Below, in pieces: positions 8,507 through 19,118 of a DNA stretch of 64,000 nt. The notes under the pieces were generated by a model. It was not told where the DNA came from and searched no databases. It saw only the letters and a program-made list of their open reading frames with translations. A program made the translations under genes and the position numbers. Positions within the stretch are counted from its first letter, which is position 1, and each line of letters opens with the position of its first letter. The DNA lies in assembly GCF_001894805.1 (NCBI RefSeq), contig NZ_BCWX01000004.1, forward strand, positions 372,001 through 436,000, given 5' to 3'. The DNA is from Rhodococcus globerulus NBRC 14531. GTDB lineage: Bacteria > Actinomycetota > Actinomycetes > Mycobacteriales > Mycobacteriaceae.

Positions 8507-10162
8507 TCAGTCGGAGGCAGGAATTCCGTTCGTTCGATCGTCGGACCCGACCGGTATCCGCGGAATCCGGCCGGTCGCGAACAGCGCCGCGACGGCAAGG
8601 AACGCTGCGACGGCAAAAGCAACACGCAGAGCTTCGAGTCTGGCCTCGGAATTGACGTCGACGATCGCCGCAGAAGTCTGCTCGTTCACGCCGGCCTGCG
8701 CCAAGGAGTCTTGAAGTTGGGTGGTCGAGAGGAATGGAACACCGGACACCATATTCGTCGTGGCTTGTTGCTGTACCGCTGCTGGAACAGCCGGATTGTC
8801 CTCGATCCCGGCAATTGCCGACGTTGTCAATGTTGCGATCAGCACCGAACCGATCAACGCCGTTCCCAGTGACGCACCGAGGTTGGTTGCAGTGTTCTGT
8901 AATCCACCTACTTCTGCGCTCTTGTCGTCCGGCAGCGCCGACACCGTGACGGCTCCGAGTTGTGACGACAGCGCCCCCAAACCGAACCCCAGGAACAACA
9001 TCGGAACCATCACGATCGCGGCATTTGCGCCCGGATCCATCCCGGCAACCAACAACAGGATGCCGACAATCATCGACAACAACCCGATGCGGACGACGCG
9101 ACGGGGATTCGCCGTCGGCCGGAGCTTCGGAATTCCGATCGCGGCCAGTACCAGGGCTGCCGACAACGGCAGGATTCGCACCCCGGTCTCGAGTGCGCTC
9201 AGTTCGAGAACCACGGACAGGAAAAGCGGCACCGCAAAAAACACGCCCGCTTGAACGAGGAATTGGGCAAAGAACATCGAAAGCCCACCTGTCAGTTGCC
9301 GATTCCTCAGCATGTCCGGATCGACAAGTGGTTCCTTGCCTACACTGACCAACCACGCTTCCCAGCGGAGGAAGCCGTAGACAACCAACATCCCACCGAG
9401 CAACAGCCACACGACCGGCGACATCCCCAGCATCTCCGGCCCTTGGGGTTTGGCCTGCAACCAACCCCATTCACTCGAACGCAGAACACCGAAAACGATC
9501 ATGCCGAGGCCTGCCACTGACAATAGGGAACCCACACCGTCGAGATGACCCTTGGTGGGGGCAACATCGGCAACCTTTCGCAACACCAACAAGATCGCAA
9601 CTACAAGGACGACCTCGCCGAGGAAGACATACCGCCACGACGCGAAAGTCGTGACAGCGCCACCGATCAGTGGTCCGACGGCAACTGCCATCGCTCCGGC
9701 GGCCGCTACCAATCCGTATGCGGCCGGTCGCTTTTCCGCCGAAAAGTTTGATGCCACCAGCGCCACGATCGCCGGCATGATCAATGCCGCACCGATCCCC
9801 TCGAGGAGCGACCATCCGATCAGCAACACGGCAAGATTGGGCGCGATCGCCGTCGTGAACGACCCGACCCCGTAGATGACCAGCCCCAACCCGAAGGCCC
9901 GCCGCCGGCCGATCATCGAACCGACTTTGCTGCCCGTGATCATCAGGGTCGCCATCACCAGGGTGTACAGCGTGATAGCGGTTTGGATACCGGTAATTGT
10001 GGTCCCGACATCCGCGGCCACGGTCGCCATCGAGACGTTCATGACCGAACTGTCGAGAGTCATCAAGAATTGGCCACATGCCAACACTGCGAGGACCAAA
10101 CCAGAACCTGCTTGTGTTGCCGATGTCTGCGCACGGGTCATCGCGAGGGAATACCCGAACAT
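8507..10162 (-). CDS. MFS drug/proton antiporter, DHA2 (EmrB/QacA) family
   Basis: 551 residues with about 14 hydrophobic segments, the size and helix count of DHA2 exporters. The N-terminal MTLDSSVMNVSMATV matches the motif D1 region (LDxTIVNVALP-like) and GSMIGRRRAF is the motif A loop. The start at 10162 lies 8 nt after the stop of the VWA gene, with a GAAAG site upstream; an internal ATG at 10141 is an alternative. The long hydrophilic loop near residues 460-520 is usual for the family. Its place directly downstream of the MoxR/VWA/SWIM genes suggests co-transcription, but a functional link is unproven because DHA2 genes turn up in many contexts. The substrate is unknown. Confidence 0.88.
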   Translation of the reverse strand: MFGYSLAMTRAQTSATQAGSGLVLAVLACGQFLMTLDSSVMNVSMATVAADVGTTITGIQTAITLYTLVMATLMITGSKVGSMIGRRRAFGLGLVIYGVGSFTTAIAPNLAVLLIGWSLLEGIGAALIMPAIVALVASNFSAEKRPAAYGLVAAAGAMAVAVGPLIGGAVTTFASWRYVFLGEVVLVVAILLVLRKVADVAPTKGHLDGVGSLLSVAGLGMIVFGVLRSSEWGWLQAKPQGPEMLGMSPVVWLLLGGMLVVYGFLRWEAWLVSVGKEPLVDPDMLRNRQLTGGLSMFFAQFLVQAGVFFAVPLFLSVVLELSALETGVRILPLSAALVLAAIGIPKLRPTANPRRVVRIGLLSMIVGILLLVAGMDPGANAAIVMVPMLFLGFGLGALSSQLGAVTVSALPDDKSAEVGGLQNTATNLGASLGTALIGSVLIATLTTSAIAGIEDNPAVPAAVQQQATTNMVSGVPFLSTTQLQDSLAQAGVNEQTSAAIVDVNSEARLEALRVAFAVAAFLAVAALFATGRIPRIPVGSDDRTNGIPASD

Positions 10163-10170
10163 GTGTTCTT

Positions 10171-11328
10171 TCAAGCAGGGCGATTTTTGTCTGCCCACGC
10201 ACCGACGTCGCCGCGCTCCAACGCCACCGCGAGTAACTCCGGGAACTTGTCCGGCGTACACGCAAAAGCAGGAATGCCCAGCCCGCCCAAAGCTGCGGCG
10301 TTGTCGTGATCGAACGAGGGTGCACCGTCGTCGGAGAGCGCCAGCAAGACCACCACCTGAACGCCGGCCGCTTTCATCGCGGCCATGCGCCGAAGCATCT
10401 CGTTGCGAATTCCGCCCTCGTACAGATCGGAGATGAGCACGAACATCGACTCGGACGGCCGTGAGATCAACGACTGGCTATAGGCGATCGCTCGGTTGAT
10501 GTCGGTGCCGCCACCCAACTGAGTTCCGAACAGCACGTCCACCGGATCCACTAATTTCTCCGTCAGATCAACCACCGCGGTGTCGAAGACCACCAGCGAC
10601 GTCTTCAGCGCGCGCATCGACGCCAGGACTGCGCCGAATACCGAGGCATAGACAACACTGGACGCCATCGAACCCGATTGATCGATGGCCAGTACCACGT
10701 CACGTTGTACGGCCGTGGATTTCCGTCCGTAGCCGATCAGTCGTTCCGGCACCACAGTGCGATACTCGGGCAGGTAATTCTTCAAGTTCGCCGCGATGGT
10801 GCGGTTCCAATCGATGTCTCGCAGCTTCGGATTGGACGTCCGGGCAGCACGATTGAGCGCCCCGGTCACCGCTGCTCTGGTCTTCTGAGCAATGCGCTCC
10901 TCCACTTCGCGCACCACCTTGCCCACCACCATCCGGGCGGTGGCCTTGCTGGCTTCCGGCATCACCTGGTTGAGGCTGAGCAGGGTGCCCACCAAGTGCA
11001 CATCAGGTTCGACGGCATCGAGCAGTTCCGGTTCCAGCAGCAGGTGCGTCAGTCCGAGTCGTTCTATCGCGTCCTTCTGCATCACCTGAACCACGGTGCT
11101 GGGAAAGTAGGTACGGATATCGCCGAGCCACCGTGCAACTTTTGGCGCCGACGCACCCAACCCCGCTGAGCGCCGAGTTCCCTTCGTTGGCTTCGAACTG
11201 TCGTAGAGAGCGGCCAGAGCGGCATCCATCTGCGAGTCTCCCGGCAAGCCGAGTCCGCCCGTCGACTCCTCTGCGGATTCACCCAGCATCAAGCGCCATC
11301 GCCGCAGCCGCTGCTCGTCTTCGCTCAT
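10171..11328 (-). CDS. VWA-domain protein of a MoxR/VWA/SWIM operon
   Basis: 385 residues. An N-terminal helical region (1-200) precedes a von Willebrand factor A domain (about 205-375). The metal-ion-dependent adhesion site is complete: DQSGS (Asp216, Ser218, Ser220), the threonine in GGGTDI and the aspartate in LISDLYE. This argues for a metal-dependent protein-binding role. VWA proteins commonly pair with MoxR AAA+ ATPases as substrate adaptors, and the ATPase is two genes upstream. The ATG overlaps the stop of the DUF5682 gene by 4 nt, so translation is probably coupled. No signal peptide or membrane segment is seen, so the protein is cytoplasmic. The target is unknown. Confidence 0.88.
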   Translation of the reverse strand: MSEDEQRLRRWRLMLGESAEESTGGLGLPGDSQMDAALAALYDSSKPTKGTRRSAGLGASAPKVARWLGDIRTYFPSTVVQVMQKDAIERLGLTHLLLEPELLDAVEPDVHLVGTLLSLNQVMPEASKATARMVVGKVVREVEERIAQKTRAAVTGALNRAARTSNPKLRDIDWNRTIAANLKNYLPEYRTVVPERLIGYGRKSTAVQRDVVLAIDQSGSMASSVVYASVFGAVLASMRALKTSLVVFDTAVVDLTEKLVDPVDVLFGTQLGGGTDINRAIAYSQSLISRPSESMFVLISDLYEGGIRNEMLRRMAAMKAAGVQVVVLLALSDDGAPSFDHDNAAALGGLGIPAFACTPDKFPELLAVALERGDVGAWADKNRPA

Positions 11329-13520
11329 GCGTTGACCCCCAAGATATCCGAAACGACAGCCATCGCTGCCCGGCCACGTCGTGCATCGGTCTCGACTGAG
11401 GTCTCGGTGACACGGCCACCGCGCACGGCCTGTCCGATCGCGCGCCGCTCCCCCGCCTCGAATGCACCGAACGTCCGGCGCAGCAACGGGAGGGTGTCGA
11501 TGAAATCCTGCTCACGCAGCTGCCCAACCCAACTGTCGATCAAGTCCAGTAGCGCTCGATCGTGCACCAGGACCAGCCCACCGCCGCCGAGGAAACCGTC
11601 GACCCACCCTGCCTTGTCCACTGGCGCGCTACCGATGGACAGCGCCCGTGACAACCGCTGCGCCGCATCGAATTCCGAAATCGATCCGGCATCACGGAGC
11701 AATCGGACCATCCGACCCGTCAGAATCCCGTTGACGTCGTCACGGTCGATGAGACCTGAGACCACCTTCAGCCATCGCACGATGGACTCCGGATGGTCGC
11801 GCATCAACACGGCCGCGTGCACCTTGTCGAGATGATCACGGAACTCTTCGGCGCTCGCGTCGTCAAGTCCGGTAACCGCCACCGGCAGGCCGGTGCAGAT
11901 TCGAACCAACAGTCCGTCGGCAACTTCCGTCAGAGCAGATACGTCGGTACCGCGCACGTCACCGTAGCGCAGGGTGCGTGTGAGTATCGGCAGCGCTGCC
12001 ATCAGATGTGTTACGTCATGATCAAGAGCTGCAACAGTTTTGACACTCGTCAGCACCCGGGTCAGCGCGTCCGGAAGATCAGCGAGGAGGCACTGTTCCA
12101 AGAGTTCGATCAGCGCAGCGAGCGCAATATCGGGTGCCTGAACTCGTGCCTCGATTTTGGCCGCAGCTCCGACCGATACCGTTGTTCCCCACAGCGATGC
12201 CTCGATCACCGACACCGCAAATTCCGGCTTCCATTGCAATGCCCACGTTTCCCGGAAGGTACCCGTAGAACGCACTTCGTCCTCCGCCGGCACACCCCAG
12301 TCGATATCGAGGAGAGCCAACCTGTGCAGGAATCGTGAACGCTCGACGTCGATGTCGCGGCGCAAGTCCAGATCAAGGTTCTTCGCGCCCGCCTGTTGCT
12401 TGAGACGCAGCGTTTTTGCCCTGGCCCGCAAGTCTGCTTCCAGCGGAACCGTCGGAGTTTCTTCAGGCACTTCACCCAAAGACTCGCCGACCACCAATTT
12501 TCGGGTGATCAGATCGAGCAGCACGTCGTTACCGTCGCACATCACCGACCTTGTCGCCTCTGTCACTTCCGACAAGCCGGCCAGAGGCCGAGAGCGTATG
12601 ACTGCCAATGCTTCTGCCAGTCTCACCGCTTCGATGACGTGTGCACTCGAGATCGGCAGATCTTCGGCGCGAAGCACCCGGGCAACCTTGGTCAGCCAGC
12701 GGGCAACAGTCTTGTCCTGCGCTGTGAACAGGTGGTGATACCAACCCGGCGAGGTGATCCCCGCGCCGTACCCCGATACGGACGCCAGTCGCGAATGCGT
12801 CCAGGGAACCCACGTCAACGACGTCTTGATCTTGGTCATTCCCTTGAGGATTCGAGCATCCACCGAAGCGGGACCGAGCGGGCCCACCAACGCGGGCGCA
12901 TGCCACGCACCGCACACGACGGCCACTCGCTGCGCGCCGTCCTTGAGTGTTTTTCGCAGCACCTGACGCATGTACGCCTCACGGTGCGCCGTCTCCTCGT
13001 CAATCGGCACGGTCTCCCGAAGTGCCGCCATCGCATCGGTGATCGCATCGAAGACATCCGAGCTGCCTGTACCCGAGTTGGATTCGATGACGGAATCCCA
13101 CCAACGCTCGGTGTCGTCGTAACCTGCAGCCGCAGCCAACTCGGCTAGTGGGTCTCCTTCACGCGTGCTCAGTTCAGGCCGATCTGCCAACATGTTGTAC
13201 GCGGGTAGGTCGCAGAAACGTGCCTGCACACCGTTTTTCGCAGACCAGTCAAGGGCCTGCCATTCCGGCGAAAACACCGCAAACGGCCAAAATGCGGCCT
13301 TCGACGGTTCGCCCGTCGCATACGCCAACAGAGCAACCGGTGGCGACATGGTTTCCGATGCCGCCAGCATTACCAGTGGATCTGCATCCGATGGACCTTC
13401 GATCAGGACAACTTCCGGAGCAAACTCCTCCAACCCGCGCCGAACGGCACGCGCCGAGCCCGGCCCGTGATGACGGATCCCGAAAACTCGGACCCTGCTG
13501 TCCTGCATGGCAAATGTCAC
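11325..13520 (-). CDS. DUF5682 family protein
   Basis: 731 residues, cytoplasmic. The N-terminus carries the family signature VFGIRHHGPGSAR followed by a VVLIEGPSDAD strand, and later the motif VVCGAWHAPAL. These resemble the GxxH and E/H positions of TraB/erythromycin-esterase-like folds, but I cannot assign a catalytic activity. The rest is mainly helical. The start at 13520 overlaps the MoxR stop by 4 nt (ATGA), and its own stop overlaps the VWA start by 4 nt, giving tight coupling on both sides. An internal ATG at 13508 is less likely because it would break that overlap. Members of this family are, from memory, regularly found beside MoxR, VWA and SWIM genes. Confidence 0.85.
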   Translation of the reverse strand: MTFAMQDSRVRVFGIRHHGPGSARAVRRGLEEFAPEVVLIEGPSDADPLVMLAASETMSPPVALLAYATGEPSKAAFWPFAVFSPEWQALDWSAKNGVQARFCDLPAYNMLADRPELSTREGDPLAELAAAAGYDDTERWWDSVIESNSGTGSSDVFDAITDAMAALRETVPIDEETAHREAYMRQVLRKTLKDGAQRVAVVCGAWHAPALVGPLGPASVDARILKGMTKIKTSLTWVPWTHSRLASVSGYGAGITSPGWYHHLFTAQDKTVARWLTKVARVLRAEDLPISSAHVIEAVRLAEALAVIRSRPLAGLSEVTEATRSVMCDGNDVLLDLITRKLVVGESLGEVPEETPTVPLEADLRARAKTLRLKQQAGAKNLDLDLRRDIDVERSRFLHRLALLDIDWGVPAEDEVRSTGTFRETWALQWKPEFAVSVIEASLWGTTVSVGAAAKIEARVQAPDIALAALIELLEQCLLADLPDALTRVLTSVKTVAALDHDVTHLMAALPILTRTLRYGDVRGTDVSALTEVADGLLVRICTGLPVAVTGLDDASAEEFRDHLDKVHAAVLMRDHPESIVRWLKVVSGLIDRDDVNGILTGRMVRLLRDAGSISEFDAAQRLSRALSIGSAPVDKAGWVDGFLGGGGLVLVHDRALLDLIDSWVGQLREQDFIDTLPLLRRTFGAFEAGERRAIGQAVRGGRVTETSVETDARRGRAAMAVVSDILGVNA

Positions 13521-14617
13521 CCGGTGACCTCGCGGCAGGCCCGGTAGAAGTCGGACCAGTCGCCTCGTTCACGCACCACGGCCTCTAGGTATTCGTTCCA
13601 CACCACGCTGTCCGCTACCGGGTCCTTGATCACCGTGCCGAGAATCCCGGCCGCGACGTCTGATGCGCGCAGGACACCGTCACCGAAGTGCGCGGACAAC
13701 GCCAAGCCGTTGGTGACCACCGAAATCGCCTCTGCTGTTGACAGCGTCCCGGATGGGGACTTCAGCTTTGTCCGACCATCTGCCGTGGTGCCGGAACGCA
13801 ATTCGCGAAATACGGTGACGACTCGACGAATTTCCTCAGCCGCTGCCGGAACGAGAGGCAACTCCAGCGCCGCACCCAATTGTTCGACCCGCCGGGCCAC
13901 AATGGCCACCTCGTCTTCCTCGCTGGCAGGCAGAGGCAGAACGACGGTATTGAATCGTCGACGCAATGCGGAGGACAGATCGTTGACACCACGGTCGCGG
14001 TCGTTGGCAGTGGCGATGAGGTTGAAGCCCTTGGCCGCCTGCACTTCCATACCCAATTCGGGCACGGGAAGCGTCTTCTCGGACAGGATCGTGATGAGAG
14101 CGTCCTGCACGTCGGCCGGGATGCGCGTCAACTCCTCGACTCGAGCGATCTTCCCGGTTTCCATCGCGTTCATCACCGGCGAGGGCACCAACGCGCCGGC
14201 GGTAGGGCCTTCGGCGAGCAGACGCGCGTAGTTCCAGCCGTACCGGATGGCTTCTTCGGGTGTGCCGGACGTGCCCTGAACCAAGAGCGTCGACGCCCCC
14301 GATATCGCAGCCGAAAGGTGCTCGGACACCCAGGTTTTAGCGGTTCCCGGCACTCCGAGCAAGAGCAGTGCGCGGTCGGTCGCGAGCGTCGCGACGGCGA
14401 CTTCCATCAGCCGACGCGGGCCCACGTACTTGGGAGAAATGACGGTACCGTCCTCGAGAGTGCCGCCCAGCAGGTACGTGACGACCGCCCAGGGTGAGAG
14501 GTTCCACGACGGTGGCCGCGGACGCGTGTCGGCCGCCGCCAGTGCGGCTAACTCATGTGCGTATTCCTGCTCGGCGTGCGGACGCATCAGTGAGGTCGGA
14601 TCAACAGTGGCACTCAT
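13517..14617 (-). CDS. MoxR-like AAA+ ATPase
   Basis: 366 residues. Walker A is GVPGTAKT at 88-95. The Walker B region reads IARVEELTRIPADVQDALI, where the usual Asp-Glu pair is Glu-Glu. Sensor 1 is NLIATAND and the arginine finger region is SSALRRRF, both typical of the MoxR clade. MoxR ATPases act as oligomeric chaperone-like remodelers, usually with a VWA partner that brings in the client. The first codon overlaps the DUF5691 stop by 4 nt, and the last overlaps the DUF5682 start. The client and physiological role are unknown. The conserved surroundings make this the energy module of the operon. Confidence 0.9.
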   Translation of the reverse strand: MSATVDPTSLMRPHAEQEYAHELAALAAADTRPRPPSWNLSPWAVVTYLLGGTLEDGTVISPKYVGPRRLMEVAVATLATDRALLLLGVPGTAKTWVSEHLSAAISGASTLLVQGTSGTPEEAIRYGWNYARLLAEGPTAGALVPSPVMNAMETGKIARVEELTRIPADVQDALITILSEKTLPVPELGMEVQAAKGFNLIATANDRDRGVNDLSSALRRRFNTVVLPLPASEEDEVAIVARRVEQLGAALELPLVPAAAEEIRRVVTVFRELRSGTTADGRTKLKSPSGTLSTAEAISVVTNGLALSAHFGDGVLRASDVAAGILGTVIKDPVADSVVWNEYLEAVVRERGDWSDFYRACREVTG

Positions 14618-16098
14618 GTGAGCTCCTCGAGCAGTGTCTTGCGGTGGACAATGGCGTTGGCGGTCTTGACAAAAGCTTGCTGCCAGTCGAGATCACGGGC
14701 ACGTTCCGCGGCCCGGCCGAGCACGGTTACTGCGCTGTACGGGAAACTGGCCTGCGCAAGACGCAGCGACTCGGAGTACTTGTAGCGGGAGAACTCGGCA
14801 GATCTGGCCCCGCCATCTGCACGCCTGGCCGCGGCGCGTTCCCACTGCGCCACCACGGAGGCTGTGATGTCGTCCGGCCACGGGCGAGGCAGCGTCTGGA
14901 AGATCGCCGCCCGGTCCGGATGCAGGATGTTCGCGTCACCAGTTCCAGACAAGAGGAGATCGGCCAGATCGCGCGGCGGAATCATCGGGAGCAGGCGCCT
15001 GTCGGTGGACAGACCACGCGTGCGGAAAATCGCCTGAGCCCATTCCGAGTTATGTTGGAGTACAGCGGCCGTGGACCAGGCGTCGTGAAGGATCGGTTCC
15101 CAGGTTCGGTCGAGACTCAGGTTCAGAACTGCCGACGGTTGACCGATCATGTTGTTCCACAAAGATAGTGGAGCTGCACTGATCGCCTGCCGTACGTACT
15201 CGGCGCGGTAATCGGTGTGTGGGTTGGGCCGATCCTCGATCCCGTCGCGCTTCGCAGCCGCATCGATTTCTTCGGGGGCCTCGACCACAAGTCGCACACC
15301 GGACTGTGTTCGTTCGATCCGCACCCATTCCTGGACGCGCCGAGCCATACGTTCACCGAAAGGCGACTGCGGCAGTCGGGCGAGAACCGTCGCTGCTTCA
15401 CGCCGGACATCCTTGCGCCTGTCGTCGAGGGCGCGTTCGAGCAAGGGCACGTCATCGGCACTCAATCCGGTGACGAGAGCTGCGACAAACGCTGCTTTGT
15501 GTTCTCCCCGTTCCGTTTCCCAGGATTGTGTCAGCTCTTCCGACGCCTGCGCCGGCTCGCTCCGGCGGGTATCGGCCAACCACCGGAGGCGTTCTGCCGG
15601 CGTTCCGTGCCGCCACCCGTCGACGCCGCCGCCGTGACCGCGAATCAGAATGGACCACTCCGGATTTCGGGTTGCCAGCCACTGTCCGCGCTCGCCGGCG
15701 ATTCGCAGGATTCTCTCACGGTAGACCTCACCGGCTCGCGCATACGCCAATAGTTCCGCGACCAGATGATCCGGTGCCCGGAAGTTTCGCTCGAGCGCCA
15801 GCGCAAACCACTCGTCGAGCAGCGTCGCCTTGGCAGCCAGCATGGAAAGCAGATGCGCAGAAGACGATTCGGGGAGAACCAGCCGCGGATCGTCCTCCGC
15901 GGGCACAGGCAGATCGGCAGTGACGGAACCTGCTCCCCCGGCGCGGTAGGCCCTGGCCAGCGCCGCCGCCTCCAGCAGCACTACTGCCGGATCGCCGCCA
16001 AGTCGCGTGGCAGCCGAACGGACATCGACCGGAAGATCATCGAAACTCGCTGCTGTACGCGATGTTCCGAGCAGAGCCGCCGACATGAGAGTGCTCAC
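14614..16098 (-). CDS. DUF5691 family HEAT-like protein
   Basis: 494 residues when started at the GTG at 16098, which overlaps the SWIM gene stop in a GTGA junction; a longer frame to 16209 lies inside the SWIM gene and is not needed. The N-terminus STLMSAALLGTSR is typical of the family. The body is rich in short amphipathic helices (LLERALDDRRKDVRREAATVLARL resembles a HEAT repeat in its central part), suggesting a protein-binding scaffold. No catalytic motif or signal peptide is visible. It sits between the SWIM and MoxR genes with 4-nt overlaps at both ends, as expected for a subunit or adaptor of the MoxR/VWA assembly. The molecular function is unknown. Confidence 0.82.
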   Translation of the reverse strand: MSTLMSAALLGTSRTAASFDDLPVDVRSAATRLGGDPAVVLLEAAALARAYRAGGAGSVTADLPVPAEDDPRLVLPESSSAHLLSMLAAKATLLDEWFALALERNFRAPDHLVAELLAYARAGEVYRERILRIAGERGQWLATRNPEWSILIRGHGGGVDGWRHGTPAERLRWLADTRRSEPAQASEELTQSWETERGEHKAAFVAALVTGLSADDVPLLERALDDRRKDVRREAATVLARLPQSPFGERMARRVQEWVRIERTQSGVRLVVEAPEEIDAAAKRDGIEDRPNPHTDYRAEYVRQAISAAPLSLWNNMIGQPSAVLNLSLDRTWEPILHDAWSTAAVLQHNSEWAQAIFRTRGLSTDRRLLPMIPPRDLADLLLSGTGDANILHPDRAAIFQTLPRPWPDDITASVVAQWERAAARRADGGARSAEFSRYKYSESLRLAQASFPYSAVTVLGRAAERARDLDWQQAFVKTANAIVHRKTLLEELT

Positions 16099-17402
16099 AG
16101 TGCCATCACCTGACCATTCACGAATACCGAGAATGCCTCGATGTATCGTGCATTCCACGTTCCGCAGACACTCACCGGATGCCCACCGGAAATGCCGAGG
16201 AGTGTCCACATCATGCGTGAATCACCTTCTGCCGGAAGCGCTGAACCGGACTTGTCCACCAGAAACCACGATCCGTCGACATACGACGGCGTCACATCGG
16301 TGACCACAACCGGCCACGACCGCAACCACGGATCAGCGCTGACTGCGTCGGTGTAGTGCTCCAGCGCCGCCGCAATGTTCCCCGCCGGCAGAGTCGTGAA
16401 CGGCTCCGCCTCACCATGTGTTGCTCCGAGTCGTGCCCGCAGCGCCGCCGCACCGGGATAGAAGTGCAGGTCTGCGTCGACCACATGTCCGACAGGCGGT
16501 ACGCCACCCGAGAAGTTGGGAGAACCGTGGGAGAAGTCGAGCAAAATCGCCCAGCGTCCCGTAGCTCGCCCCAGGAGCCACGTGGTGCGGGTGAAGAGCC
16601 GCTTCTCCTCCGTGATGCGTGAACCCATCACCATCCAGAGTTCGCGAACAGCAGGCAGTTCCATCACACTCTCGGTGGACACCGGGTATCCGACGTGCGC
16701 TCGCACCGAATCCCGAAGTGGACCGGGAAGTTGGTCCATTCTCTGATGCGCAACAACAAGGAGATGCAGGCGTACGAGTTCACCCAACACCAGCTCGGGC
16801 CAGTTCTCCGCCCCGGCCACCGCCCCGGCCAGCGACCGGAGCGCTCCGGCAACCCCCGGCGCCTGCGCGTCGACCATGCGTGCGGCCACTCCGTCGAGCG
16901 CTTCCCAGGAGATATCCATCGATGCCAGGCCACCACGTATCTGGTCGGTGATCCACAGGTCCAATTCGACCAATCCGCTTGCCACTCGTTCGGCGCGTTT
17001 CTGGGCTGTGGCCGGATCGGCAACTGCCTTGGCGGCAGGTACCGGTTGCTGTGCGGCCTTCCCCTCCCGTTGTGCCAACCACTCCGCAGCGAAGTCGAGC
17101 GGTTCCGATCCCACCGGGACGCGTCCGGTCGACCATTCGAGAAGAAGGCCGAGCGCGTGCTTGCACGGGAACTTGCGGCTGGGGCACGAGCACTTGTAGG
17201 CGGGACCGCTCAGGTCGATTATCGCCTGGTAAGGCTTCGATCCGCTGCCCTGGCACAGTCCCCAGAGGCCGTTCTCGACCTGCCCGGTCTGCGACCACGA
17301 ACCGGCCAGTTTCTGCGCAGCTGCCAACGAGGAGGCGTCGGGAGCTACCGATGCCACCTGCCCGGCAGTCCACGGCGAAGTCACTCGAACACCGTAGGTC
17401 AC
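16095..17402 (-). CDS. SWIM zinc-finger protein, first gene of the MoxR/VWA operon
   Basis: 435 residues from the GTG at 17402. The SWIM signature is KCSCPSRKFPCKH, giving Cys71, Cys73, Cys80 and His82, a zinc-binding CxC-xn-CxH module used for nucleic-acid or protein binding. The C-terminal two thirds is mixed alpha/beta with no recognised domain. The start is uncertain: an ATG at 17471 (MPTSFFELC) and more distal starts are open in frame. GTG at 17402 is favoured because the downstream protein aligns with typical family N-termini (VTYGVRVTSPWTA), but its ribosome site is weak. It heads the operon and is divergent from the DGPF gene, with about 150 bp between the two starts for promoters. 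Confidence 0.82.
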   Translation of the reverse strand: MTYGVRVTSPWTAGQVASVAPDASSLAAAQKLAGSWSQTGQVENGLWGLCQGSGSKPYQAIIDLSGPAYKCSCPSRKFPCKHALGLLLEWSTGRVPVGSEPLDFAAEWLAQREGKAAQQPVPAAKAVADPATAQKRAERVASGLVELDLWITDQIRGGLASMDISWEALDGVAARMVDAQAPGVAGALRSLAGAVAGAENWPELVLGELVRLHLLVVAHQRMDQLPGPLRDSVRAHVGYPVSTESVMELPAVRELWMVMGSRITEEKRLFTRTTWLLGRATGRWAILLDFSHGSPNFSGGVPPVGHVVDADLHFYPGAAALRARLGATHGEAEPFTTLPAGNIAAALEHYTDAVSADPWLRSWPVVVTDVTPSYVDGSWFLVDKSGSALPAEGDSRMMWTLLGISGGHPVSVCGTWNARYIEAFSVFVNGQVMAL

Positions 17403-17552
17403 GCTGCCGACACCACCGCTTTCAGACGCTTCACCAGCACATACACAAAGCTCGAAAAAACTTGTCGGCATGATGTCGAGAATCCGTGGCTTGCTACGTC
17501 CCTGTAGTGAAGTGCGACCAGAATGGTGGCACCAACCCCGAGGAGAAACACG

Positions 17553-17960
17553 ATGGCCAAGTACCTGCTTCTCAAGCATTACCGCGGCGCTCCGGCGTCG
17601 GTCAACGACGTTCCCATGGATCAGTGGACACCGGAAGAGATCACGGCCCACATGCAGTACATGCAGGACTTCGCGGATCGGCTCGAGGGGACGGGAGAGT
17701 TCGTCGACGGTCAGGCTCTTGCCCCTTCAGGAACATTTGTCCGGTACGACGGCGAGGGTCGACCGCCCGTCACCGACGGCCCGTTCGCGGAGACCAAGGA
17801 CCTCATCGCCGGCTGGATGGTGATCGACGTCGACAACTACGACCGTGCCGTCGAACTGGCGGGTGAGTTGTCGGCAGCACCCGGAGCCGGCGGAAAGCCG
17901 ATCCACGAGTGGCTCGAAGTGCGCCCCTTCTTGACCGCACCACCCGCGATCACCGACTGA
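17553..17960 (+). CDS. YCII/DGPF-domain protein, partner of an ECF42 sigma factor
   Basis: 135 residues with a ferredoxin-like alpha/beta YCII fold. The family motif is visible as TDGPFAETKDLIAGW in the middle of the protein. The start at 17553 follows GAGGAGAAACACG, a strong ribosome site; the frame is open upstream but the extra ten residues are not conserved-looking. The gene lies 9 nt before an ECF sigma factor with a C-terminal extension, the hallmark arrangement of the ECF42 group. In Streptomyces, ECF42 factors are known to control DGPF genes, so this gene is a probable sigma target as well as its neighbour. The biochemical role of DGPF proteins is unknown. Confidence 0.9.
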   Translation: MAKYLLLKHYRGAPASVNDVPMDQWTPEEITAHMQYMQDFADRLEGTGEFVDGQALAPSGTFVRYDGEGRPPVTDGPFAETKDLIAGWMVIDVDNYDRAVELAGELSAAPGAGGKPIHEWLEVRPFLTAPPAITD

Positions 17961-17969
17961 CCTCGACAG

Positions 17970-19118
17970 ATGAACGACGTCTTGCTTCGGAGCCTCACTC
18001 CGAGCGTGCTCGGAATCCTCGTCCGCCGCGGAGCAGATTTCGCGGCGGCCGAGGACGCCGTGCAGGATGCGCTGCTCGAGGCAGTTCGGGTCTGGCCCGA
18101 CAACCCGCCGCGAGACCCGAAAGGATGGTTGGTCACCGTGGCCTGGCGGCGGTTCCTCGACGCGACCCGAGCGGAGGCTGCTCGCACCAGGCGTGAGCAG
18201 CTGCTCGAGGAAGAACCCGTGCGGGAGTCCGCACCCGCAGTGGACGACACACTCCAGCTCTACTTTCTGTGTGCGCACCCGTCGCTGACGTCGTCATCCG
18301 CGGTCGCGCTCACGCTGCGGGCCGTCGGCGGGCTGACCACCCGCCAGATCGCGCAGGCTTACCTGGTCCCCGAATCGACGATGGCGCAGCGCATCAGCCG
18401 GGCCAAGCGCACCGTATCCGGCGTGCGGTTCGATCAGCCGGGCGATGTCACCACGGTCCTGCGAGTCCTCTACCTGGTCTTCAACGAGGGGTACTCCGGC
18501 GATGTCGACCTCGCTGCCGAGGCCATCCGGCTCACCCGGCAGCTCGCGGCCGCAATCGACCACCCCGAAGTGGCGGGCTTGCTCGCCCTCATGTTGCTCC
18601 ACCACGCTCGGCGAGCTGCCCGGATCTCGCCCGACGGCAATCTTGTGCCCCTCGCGGAGCAAGATCGCAGCCGGTGGGACACCGCGGCGATCAGCGAGGG
18701 CATCACAACCTTGTACGCCGCGCTCGCCCGCGACCGACTCGGTGAGTACCAGGTTCAGGCCGCTATAGCGGCACTCCACGCTGACGCGCTCACCGCCGAG
18801 GAAACCGACTGGGTTCAGATCGTCGAGTGGTACGACGAACTCGAGCAACTCACCGACAGCCCGGTTGTCCGCCTCAACCGAGCGGTCGCCGTGGGAGAGG
18901 CTGACGGAGCGCGCGCCGGTCTGGCGGCACTGGCAAGGCTGGACAACTCACTGCCCCGCTACACGGCGGTGGCGGCGTATCTTCACGAGCGCGACGGAGA
19001 CCTCACGACGGCGGCGCACCTGTATGGCGAGGCGGCGCACAAGGCAACCAACCTCGCCGAACGCGACCACCTCACACGCCAGGCTTCCCGGCTCAACTCC
19101 CGCCGGAGTGCAGACTGA
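17970..19118 (+). CDS. ECF42-type RNA polymerase sigma factor with C-terminal extension
   Basis: 382 residues. Region 2 is near the N-terminus (FAAAEDAVQDALLEA, PKGWLVTVAWRRFLD) and region 4 follows (TRQIAQAYLVPESTMAQRISRAKR). A roughly 200-residue TPR-like C-terminal extension contains LALMLLHHARRAARI and LNRAVAVGEADG, signatures of the ECF42 group (sigma-70 with SnoaL-free DGPF context). No anti-sigma gene is next to it, consistent with ECF42 control through the fused extension rather than an anti-sigma factor. It starts 9 nt after the DGPF stop without a clear ribosome site, suggesting coupled translation. It converges with the PucR gene, with 9 nt between stop codons. Confidence 0.92.
   Translation: MNDVLLRSLTPSVLGILVRRGADFAAAEDAVQDALLEAVRVWPDNPPRDPKGWLVTVAWRRFLDATRAEAARTRREQLLEEEPVRESAPAVDDTLQLYFLCAHPSLTSSSAVALTLRAVGGLTTRQIAQAYLVPESTMAQRISRAKRTVSGVRFDQPGDVTTVLRVLYLVFNEGYSGDVDLAAEAIRLTRQLAAAIDHPEVAGLLALMLLHHARRAARISPDGNLVPLAEQDRSRWDTAAISEGITTLYAALARDRLGEYQVQAAIAALHADALTAEETDWVQIVEWYDELEQLTDSPVVRLNRAVAVGEADGARAGLAALARLDNSLPRYTAVAAYLHERDGDLTTAAHLYGEAAHKATNLAERDHLTRQASRLNSRRSAD

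What the first reader, a model, noticed from the sequence alone, without database searches (positions are those of the whole stretch)
8507..17402. Fully coupled SWIM-DUF5691-MoxR-DUF5682-VWA operon with MFS exporter
The first five genes have 4-nt overlaps (GTGA, ATGA, ATGA, ATGA) and the sixth follows by 8 nt. The set combines an AAA+ remodeler, a VWA protein with a complete MIDAS site, a zinc SWIM protein and two uncharacterised families. I recall a similar set in the E. coli yehL/yehM/yehP/yehQ region. A conserved stoichiometric machine with no known client is a good candidate for a new system, possibly stress response, maturation or conflict related. The Walker B Glu-Glu is unusual.
Basis: partly seen in the sequence, partly recalled or inferred. 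Interest (0 to 1): 0.7.

Follow-up and report, generated by a model that had tools for sequence, protein, structure and literature searches.

The report
Conserved five-gene MoxR–VWA remodelling machine
Five neighbouring genes encode what is probably one ATP-driven protein machine that many unrelated bacteria keep, with a distant version in nearly every E. coli; its job is still unknown, but one part looks like a divergent enzyme of the Tiki family, which gives a first testable idea of what it does.

Summary
The operon is real: SWIM, DUF5691, MoxR, DUF5682 and VWA genes run from 17402 to 10171 on the minus strand, each overlapping the next by 4 nt (the third overlap is GTGA, not ATGA). All five families lie together in 68 of 69 related loci with complete flanks. 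All 18 of 296 actinobacterial genomes with DUF5691 over cut-off also have DUF5682. In two cyanobacteria all five persist at separate places. Fusions join SWIM to DUF5691 and DUF5682 to VWA.

The MFS gene is not part. MoxR, DUF5682 and VWA match E. coli YehL, YehM and YehP; yehM is in 5284 of 5426 E. coli genomes, which argues against a mobile phage-defence cassette. The Glu-Glu Walker B is a family trait.

New lead: the DUF5682 N-terminus resembles Tiki-superfamily hydrolases; scores are weak and no structure could be predicted. Best reading: a MoxR–VWA motor coupled to a Tiki-like enzyme, with an exchangeable SWIM/DUF5691 module. Enzyme activity and client are inferred.

The parts
16095..17402 (-). 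SWIM zinc-finger protein, 435 aa (GTG start): CxCx6CxH motif plus a conserved C-terminal region with no Pfam family
   Evidence: Pfam SWIM 26.8 bits over cut-off 19.6; C71, C73, C80, H82 invariant in 32 of 32; C-terminal region distantly similar to E. coli YehQ
14614..16098 (-). DUF5691 protein, 494 aa, with a HEAT-repeat-like segment
   Evidence: PF18944 385.7 bits; weak HEAT-type matches at E up to 1: HEAT_2 in 10 and HEAT in 6 of 28 members
13517..14617 (-). MoxR-type AAA+ ATPase of the YehL kind, 366 aa
   Evidence: PF07728 129.2 bits; 40% identity over 361 aa to E. coli YehL; G88, P90, G91, T92, K94 (Walker A), E161-E162, N205 and R220-R221 invariant in 20 of 20
11325..13520 (-). DUF5682 protein, 731 aa: N-terminal Tiki-superfamily-like domain (about residues 10-210) followed by about 500 residues of unknown fold
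   Evidence: PF18934 873.5 bits; 27% identity over 736 aa to YehM; Tiki-like evidence
10171..11328 (-). CoxE-type VWA protein, 385 aa, complete MIDAS
   Evidence: PF05762 167.1 bits; 36% identity over 367 aa to YehP; D216, S218, S220, D301 invariant in 18 of 18
8507..10162 (-). DHA2/EmrB-like MFS exporter, 551 aa: a lineage-specific neighbour, judged not part of the machine
   Evidence: TIGR00711 186.9 bits, below its cut-off of 230.2; follows VWA in 9 of 16 congener regions fetched; in 74 of 80 wider loci its profile has no match within 600 nt after VWA, some loci being cut by contig ends

Best explanation
The five genes encode one soluble, ATP-driven protein-remodelling machine related to E. 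coli YehLMPQ. Shown by sequence: a core of MoxR, DUF5682 and VWA that is shared by several arrangements, plus a SWIM+DUF5691 module found in this arrangement. Inferred: MoxR forms the hexameric motor; the VWA protein docks on it and grips an acidic residue of a partner or client through its MIDAS site, as proposed for NorD with NorQ; DUF5682 is bound to the VWA protein and carries a Tiki-superfamily-like active site that hydrolyses a peptide or ester bond in the client, so that ATP-driven remodelling is coupled to a cut or to switching the enzyme on and off; the SWIM and HEAT-like DUF5691 proteins recognise the client. No client or activity has been shown. The MFS exporter is a bystander.
For: Linkage: all five families in 68 of 69 full-flank loci out of 80; 33 of 60 further regions carry all five, 16 of them congeners, and 3 more are cut by contig ends; the same order annotated in Rhizobium and Deinococcus plasmids. 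Co-inheritance: all 18 of 296 genomes with DUF5691 over cut-off are among the 21 with DUF5682; in cyanobacteria G648 and G712 all five lie far apart on one contig. Physical coupling: DUF5682 and VWA in one frame in 5 of 5 actinobacterial loci of one type, confirmed by Pfam in L164; SWIM-DUF5691 fusion in Hymenobacter, 1009 aa. Core shared with E. coli. Tiki-like: H17, E41, G204 and H207 invariant in 13 of 13 rows not chosen by motif; among 60 N-terminal domains the only other Pfam families matched by more than one member are TraB (8) and ChaN/Tiki (4); the 13-row profile scores 32.7 against TraB versus at most 23.3 in 200 column shuffles and 18.8-23.6 for three unrelated profiles. Mechanism by analogy with NorQD: PMC13036017 (abstract) and PMC9976466 (passages).
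Against: The Tiki assignment rests on weak scores: hhalign probabilities of 3, 10, 21 and 23% with four DUF5682 alignments, over only 35-69 columns at the second motif; the first motif was not aligned. Pfam E-values are 0.0057-0.061, and two unrelated families matched single members as well or better (CBM46 0.0038, AroM 0.0056). No solved structure matched the profiles, and structure prediction failed and was then switched off. The first Glu of the 2His/2Glu motif of one Tiki peptidase (PMC6254334, abstract and passages) has no counterpart two residues before the His. VWA binding to MoxR, and DUF5682 being an enzyme rather than a binding domain, are untested. No consistent client gene was found.
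Confidence: 0.45

Rival explanations
1. A metal- or cofactor-insertion chaperone like CoxDE or NorQD: MoxR-VWA opens a client enzyme, and DUF5682 acts as a ChaN-like carrier or binder rather than a hydrolase.
For: The VWA protein is of the CoxE type; NorQ-NorD inserts iron into its client (PMC9976466, passages; PMC13036017, abstract); one of the two Tiki models hit is the haem-binding ChaN family; a copper-evolution study lists yehM among mutated genes (PMC12409786, passages).
Against: NorQD is encoded beside its client enzyme (PMC9976466); here the cross-genus neighbour clusters that I identified are widespread families at varied positions and none is a consistent partner. The copper mutation is one gene among many.
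Confidence: 0.27
2. A biological-conflict (anti-phage or programmed-death) system like the MoxR-vWA ternary systems of Kaur et al. 2020.
For: Same MoxR-vWA core logic with extra components (PMC7159879, passages); the P-loop has the GxxxTAK form that the paper notes, as GXXXTAKS, for two of its classes; one actinobacterial genus (g8) carries one to three DUF5682 copies per genome.
Against: None of the four third components of that paper was seen in these genes; the bpMoxR match is below cut-off (20 against 27 bits); PADLOC gave only two weak P-loop matches, E 0.018 and 0.029; no effector domain was recognised; yehM in 5284 of 5426 E. coli genomes, 5289 of 5291 places chromosomal; matches in 1 of 50,697 phage records; shared flanks in 9 of 16 congeners.
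Confidence: 0.12
3. The six genes, exporter included, form one export or resistance operon.
For: 8-nt spacing and same strand in the window; the pair is kept in 9 of 16 congener regions fetched.
Against: Absent from the other 7 congeners; within 600 nt after VWA in only 6 of 80 wider loci, 5 of them weak family-level matches; where present in congeners it comes with the GGDEF-EAL neighbour, which suggests local synteny.
Confidence: 0.03

Closest known systems
E. coli YehL-YehM-YehP-YehQ
   Same: Homologous MoxR (40%), DUF5682 (27%) and VWA (36%) proteins in the same order; YehQ is a SWIM protein whose C-terminal region is distantly related.
   Different: E. coli has no DUF5691 by the control searches; SWIM stands last instead of first; a DUF4132 gene (yehI) stands upstream. 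Function also unknown as far as my searches went.
NorQ-NorD and CoxD-CoxE cofactor-insertion chaperones
   Same: MoxR-type AAA+ protein plus VWA partner with MIDAS; the VWA protein belongs to the CoxE family.
   Different: No client enzyme in the operon; three extra conserved proteins; Walker B Glu-Glu in place of the usual Asp-Glu.
MoxR-vWA ternary conflict systems (VMAP, iSTAND, FtsH, beta-propeller)
   Same: MoxR-vWA pair plus additional conserved components; GxxxTAK P-loop form.
   Different: None of the four third components and no effector domain recognised; core-genome behaviour in E. coli.
Tiki superfamily (TraB/PrgY/GumN, erythromycin esterase, ChaN)
   Same: DUF5682 N-terminus has a His, a Glu about 25 residues on, a conserved Arg and a second GxxH, as TraB-family proteins do.
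   Different: Very divergent in sequence, not assigned to a Tiki family above cut-off in these scans, followed by a long C-terminal region and embedded in an AAA+ system.

Membership tests
MoxR-type AAA+ ATPase, YehL-like | Walker A, Walker B glutamate, sensor Asn and Arg finger region intact | tested here: met
   K94, E161, E162, N205, R220, R221 invariant in 20 of 20; Pfam AAA_5 129 bits. The roles of N205 and R220-R221 are assigned from recall of AAA+ anatomy.
E. coli YehLMPQ-type system | MoxR, DUF5682 and VWA homologues in order, plus a SWIM protein | tested here: met
   BLASTP E 5e-73, 3e-42, 2e-76; SWIM against YehQ hhalign 33.5 (probability 11%) versus maximum 24.2 in 60 shuffles
E. 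coli YehLMPQ-type system | DUF4132 (YehI-like) gene beside the operon | tested here: not met
   No YehI-model match in any of the 16 congener regions L180-L195; five window neighbours tested are other Pfam families; the window itself was not scanned with the YehI model
Tiki superfamily | His-Glu pair and second GxxH motif | tested here: met
   H17, E41, G204, H207 invariant in 13 of 13; both motifs found somewhere in the frame in 59 of 59 loci, three with PVCHH
Tiki superfamily | Significant profile similarity to a known Tiki family | tested here: inconclusive
   Weak but specific: TraB in 8 and ChaN in 4 of 60 members, other families in 1 each; 0 of 200 shuffles reach the score; hhalign probability at most 23%
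Tiki superfamily | Parallel beta-sheet Tiki fold | not testable with these tools
MoxR-vWA ternary conflict systems | VMAP, iSTAND, FtsH or beta-propeller third component with effector domains | tested here: not met
   No such Pfam domain above cut-off in the six proteins; bpMoxR 20 bits, below cut-off 27
CoxDE/NorQD cofactor chaperones | VWA protein with MIDAS residues | tested here: met
   PF05762 VWA_CoxE 167 bits; DxSxS and D301 invariant in 18 of 18
CoxDE/NorQD cofactor chaperones | Client metalloenzyme encoded in the operon | tested here: not met
   Cross-genus neighbour clusters of the 80 loci that I identified (7 representatives) are MFS, protein kinase, C39 ABC transporter, UvrD helicase, B12-binding, SDR and PutA proteins; the kinases, the one cluster mapped further, lie at varied positions and strands
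Catalogued anti-phage defence systems | Match to PADLOC-DB models | tested here: not met
   Only two weak IetA P-loop matches, E 0.018 and 0.029

The most novel reading that the evidence does not exclude
A previously unrecognised class of AAA+ machine in which a MoxR-VWA motor drives a cytosolic Tiki-superfamily peptidase or esterase, with exchangeable client-recognition modules (SWIM+DUF5691 here; possibly DUF4132 and YehQ in E. coli): regulated processing by a route separate from Clp, Lon, FtsH and the proteasome.
Probability: 0.25. Interest if true: 0.82.

Novelty: new variant of a known kind. Interest (0 to 1): 0.58.

Why it matters
The same core sits, uncharacterised as far as my searches went, in 97% of E. 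coli genomes (5284 of 5426; 5166 over at least 80% of the gene) and in at least five phyla. If DUF5682/YehM is a Tiki-like hydrolase tied to a MoxR-VWA motor, a nearly universal E. coli gene set of unknown function becomes directly testable with three point mutants in a laboratory strain, and bacteria would have an ATP-driven processing machine outside the known AAA+ proteases. No paper in the searched library holds the words DUF5682 or DUF5691.

Tried and rejected
MFS exporter as a sixth member: rejected. 'Unusual' Walker B: rejected, it is invariant in the family. Recurrent extra neighbours: clustering of 4,495 neighbour ORFs (40 largest clusters printed) gave many clade-specific clusters, several of which look like antisense shadows. 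Succinyl-CoA ligase genes recur in 11 loci of Streptomyces and relatives, confirmed by Pfam in one of them, L102. Seven cluster representatives that spanned genera were identified by Pfam: MFS, protein kinase with ADP-ribosylglycohydrolase, C39 ABC transporter, UvrD helicase, B12-binding, SDR and PutA. The kinase cluster dissolved on inspection: kinases lie at varied positions and strands.

Solved-structure searches with DUF5682 and SWIM profiles gave nothing credible. The E. coli molR/molybdate history of the yehF-yehI region is recalled only; one search did not find it in the 12 papers listed of 193. Literature on yeh genes gave incidental mentions only among what I opened: copper evolution, a butanol-tolerance strain table, a microgravity array; one search found no mention despite the listing. 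A global hhalign run against TraB aligned nothing useful. In one search the A4 rows are stale output and not used; searches repeated the controls and A4 gave no result.

One search uses 12 loci chosen from Pfam-profile hits plus E. coli; one search uses 58 profile-found regions plus E. coli, with patterns allowed anywhere in the frame. G648 and G712 may be close relatives and count as one event. Some DUF5691 matches are weak (43-76 bits).
Full report
OBSERVATION. On the minus strand lie SWIM (17402-16095), DUF5691 (16098-14614), MoxR (14617-13517), DUF5682 (13520-11325), VWA (11328-10171) and an MFS transporter (10162-8507). Each of the first five overlaps the next by four bases: GTGA, ATGA, GTGA, ATGA; the MFS start follows VWA by 8 nt. 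None of the five proteins shows a strongly hydrophobic segment, unlike the MFS protein (maximum 19-residue hydropathy 1.08-1.58 against 2.45), so a soluble machine is expected.

IS THE UNIT CONSERVED? With profiles built from these loci, 71 of 80 carry all five families. Of the 69 loci with complete flanks, 68 do; the exception is L113, a cyanobacterial bin with DUF5682 alone. In 59 of the 69 all five are on one strand; in 9, from Streptomyces, Streptantibioticus and Wenjunlia, SWIM-DUF5691 points away from MoxR-DUF5682-VWA. A second set of 60 regions came from whole genomes by Pfam profile. By my reading they sort as: 33 with all five (16 of them congeners); 3 cut by contig ends; 8 with the E. 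coli-like set (DUF4132, MoxR, DUF5682, VWA, YehQ-like SWIM); 2 further incomplete loci of that type; 5 with MoxR and DUF5682-VWA; 5 with VWA-MoxR and a divergent DUF5682 (in one of them, L168, only the Pfam model found DUF5682); 3 cyanobacterial loci with DUF5682 alone; and 1 orphan DUF5691 of the window's own genome. Rhizobium and Deinococcus plasmids show the same five-gene order by their own annotation; Methylosinus shows the first four plus a VWA gene matching in pieces; Hymenobacter shows SWIM fused to DUF5691, then MoxR, DUF5682 and VWA.

CO-INHERITANCE. In the same 296 actinobacterial genomes DUF5682 occurs in 21, and DUF5691 over its cut-off in 18; all 18 are among the 21. Three further genomes have DUF5691 matches below the cut-off and no DUF5682. 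Of the three genomes with DUF5682 only, G204 has only the other arrangements, G124 has the E. coli-like set, and G259 has DUF5682 at the edge of a 4.4-kb contig. Two cyanobacteria, G648 and G712, hold all five families at separate places on one near-genome-length contig: in G648 SWIM-like at 390 kb, MoxR at 460 kb, VWA at 1640 kb, DUF5691 at 2573 kb and DUF5682 at 4297 kb. G764 has all five on five contigs; in the bin G849 the SWIM relative was not found (same calls). Retention after the operon has fallen apart suggests a functional unit rather than hitchhiking. In G648, G712 and G764 the SWIM-family match covers only the C-terminal part, in an open frame of 320-321 residues; the G648 protein was read (319 residues) and has no Pfam SWIM match. 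A zinc-motif pattern over the three 3.9-kb loci matched once, in L232 on the coding strand far upstream, ending CxC rather than CxH and close to stop codons, so it looks like chance. The C-terminal region, not the zinc finger, therefore appears to be the indispensable part.

FUSIONS AND MODULES. L164 encodes DUF5682 (101-967) and CoxE-type VWA (996-1217) in one 1223-residue frame; in L160, L161, L162, L164 and L176 both profiles hit the same frame. Hymenobacter encodes SWIM (about 6-463, with an intact CxCx6CxH, though without a Pfam SWIM match) and DUF5691 (about 503-1002) in one 1009-residue protein. With the divergent Streptomyces layout, this points to two submodules: MoxR plus DUF5682-VWA as core, and SWIM-DUF5691 as an accessory pair. 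In E. coli the core is YehL-YehM-YehP (40, 27 and 36% identity), DUF5691 is missing by the control searches, a DUF4132 gene stands upstream, and YehQ is a SWIM protein whose C-terminal region aligns weakly with ours (hhalign 33.5, probability 11%, against a maximum of 24.2 in 60 column shuffles).

THE EXPORTER. Among the 16 congener regions fetched (L180-L195, of 20 other congeners with DUF5682), 9 have an MFS gene of at least 81% identity directly after VWA, and the same 9 have the GGDEF-EAL gene; 7 have neither. Among the 80 loci, 6 have an MFS match within 600 nt after VWA, one of them strong (L035). It is a neighbour in one lineage.

DUF5682 AS A TIKI-LIKE DOMAIN. The Pfam model starts after the first motif (residue 26). 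In 13 diverse sequences not chosen by motif, invariant residues include R16, H17, H18, E41, D104, R180, E181, G204 and H207. In 59 of 59 loci with a scorable DUF5682 frame (58 profile-found plus E. coli), an HH motif and a GxxH motif are present in the frame; 56 have RHH and 3 have PVCHH. TraB-family proteins (YbaP and seven relatives) have GxIH, a Glu 26 residues on, a conserved Arg and a second GxxH. Local profile comparison aligns the Arg and second GxxH stretch in register with the 13-row profile: 35 columns, score 32.7, pairwise E 0.003, probability 10%; 200 column shuffles reach at most 23.3 and three unrelated profiles score 18.8-23.6. A larger, motif-selected alignment scores 31.5 with probability 23% and at most 24.4 in 200 shuffles; alignment A2 scores lower (27.6, probability 3%). 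When 60 N-terminal domains are scanned singly against Pfam at E up to 1, the only families other than DUF5682 matched by more than one member, among the 25 shown of 27, are TraB_PrgY_gumN (8 members, best E 0.0057) and the Tiki-superfamily ChaN model (4 members, best E 0.0083); CBM46 (0.0038) and AroM (0.0056) matched one member each. In the 13 unselected sequences ChaN matched 2 and TraB 1. Each score alone is weak; the convergence on one superfamily is what persuades. A Tiki peptidase paper describes a 2His/2Glu active site and a His-Glu pair shared with erythromycin esterases (PMC6254334, abstract and passages). DUF5682 has the His-Glu pair and second His; the first Glu is not at the equivalent place. 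No fold could be predicted.

MECHANISM. NorQD work (PMC13036017, abstract; PMC9976466, passages) shows a MoxR ring with a VWA finger in its pore, and a MIDAS that is essential for client maturation and proposed to bind the client. By analogy MoxR is the motor and VWA the adaptor here. The fusion places DUF5682 on the VWA side. I therefore propose that ATP-driven remodelling is coupled to a Tiki-like hydrolase acting on a client selected by SWIM and the HEAT-like DUF5691. Shown: linkage, co-inheritance, fusions, conserved ATPase, MIDAS and zinc residues. Inferred: complex formation, hydrolysis, client recognition. The cofactor-insertion rival keeps real weight because ChaN-type proteins bind haem and CoxE-type VWA proteins serve metalloenzymes (family names and recall), though I found no consistent client enzyme beside the operon. 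The conflict rival is weak: two weak PADLOC hits only, none of the ternary-system third components, yehM in 5284 of 5426 E. coli genomes with 5289 of 5291 places on chromosomes, matches to the window protein in 1 of 50,697 phage and 36 of 72,556 plasmid records.

DISTRIBUTION. In the window's genus 21 of 28 genomes (own included) have DUF5682; among those at least 90% complete the six without it are 4.4-4.9 Mb and those with it 5.8-10.3 Mb. By phylum samples: 21 of 296 in the window's phylum, 13 of 349 in the phylum of Thiofilum, and 8 of 146 in the phylum of Leptolyngbya over the cut-off.

NOVELTY. Kaur et al. 2020 describe MoxR-vWA ternary conflict systems; a search of its main text found no mention of SWIM, TraB, Tiki, DUF4132 or YehL. 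No paper in the searched library holds DUF5682 or DUF5691; combined-term searches listed none that I recognised as describing this set, judged from titles and abstract starts of the rows shown. Subscription journals are mostly not held, so this is not proof of absence. I file it as a new variant of the known MoxR-VWA kind.

Noticed in passing
A lineage-specific neighbour that may hint at a link to ADP-ribosylation.
   Followed up: partly
G000:C12:61011-62267 (L179: 8979-10394): A second DUF5691 gene in the window's own genome stands without SWIM, MoxR, DUF5682 or VWA partners within the 20 kb examined.
   Followed up: partly
window 17523-19118: A YCII-domain gene and a sigma-70-family gene with DUF6596 sit just upstream of the operon; of the loci compared only L186 showed both, while several others have the PucR-type gene near SWIM (some loci are cut there).
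   Followed up: partly
L167, L177, L178 (and L168, L169): A divergent arrangement, VWA-MoxR with a distant DUF5682 relative reading PVCHH at the first motif and a LELCEDL stretch that resembles TraB proteins as I recall them.
   Followed up: partly
L257: 6383-6994; L260: 6771-7007: Small uncharacterised genes (203 and 78 aa) are inserted between MoxR and DUF5682 in Hymenobacter and Deinococcus.
   Followed up: no
L259: about 9170-10395: In Methylosinus trichosporium plasmid pOB3b3 the VWA gene of the set matches in pieces in different frames and is not listed as a gene; it looks broken.
   Followed up: no
L160-L162, L164, L176: Some actinobacteria carry an additional MoxR plus DUF5682-VWA fusion set; the large ORF upstream in L164 (1609 aa) has no Pfam match at E 0.01.
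   Followed up: partly
E. coli strain HNSQ2209, NZ_CP137737.1:1867916-1871259: yehM appears interrupted by an IS5-family insertion in this strain, though the gene is otherwise nearly universal in E. coli.
   Followed up: no
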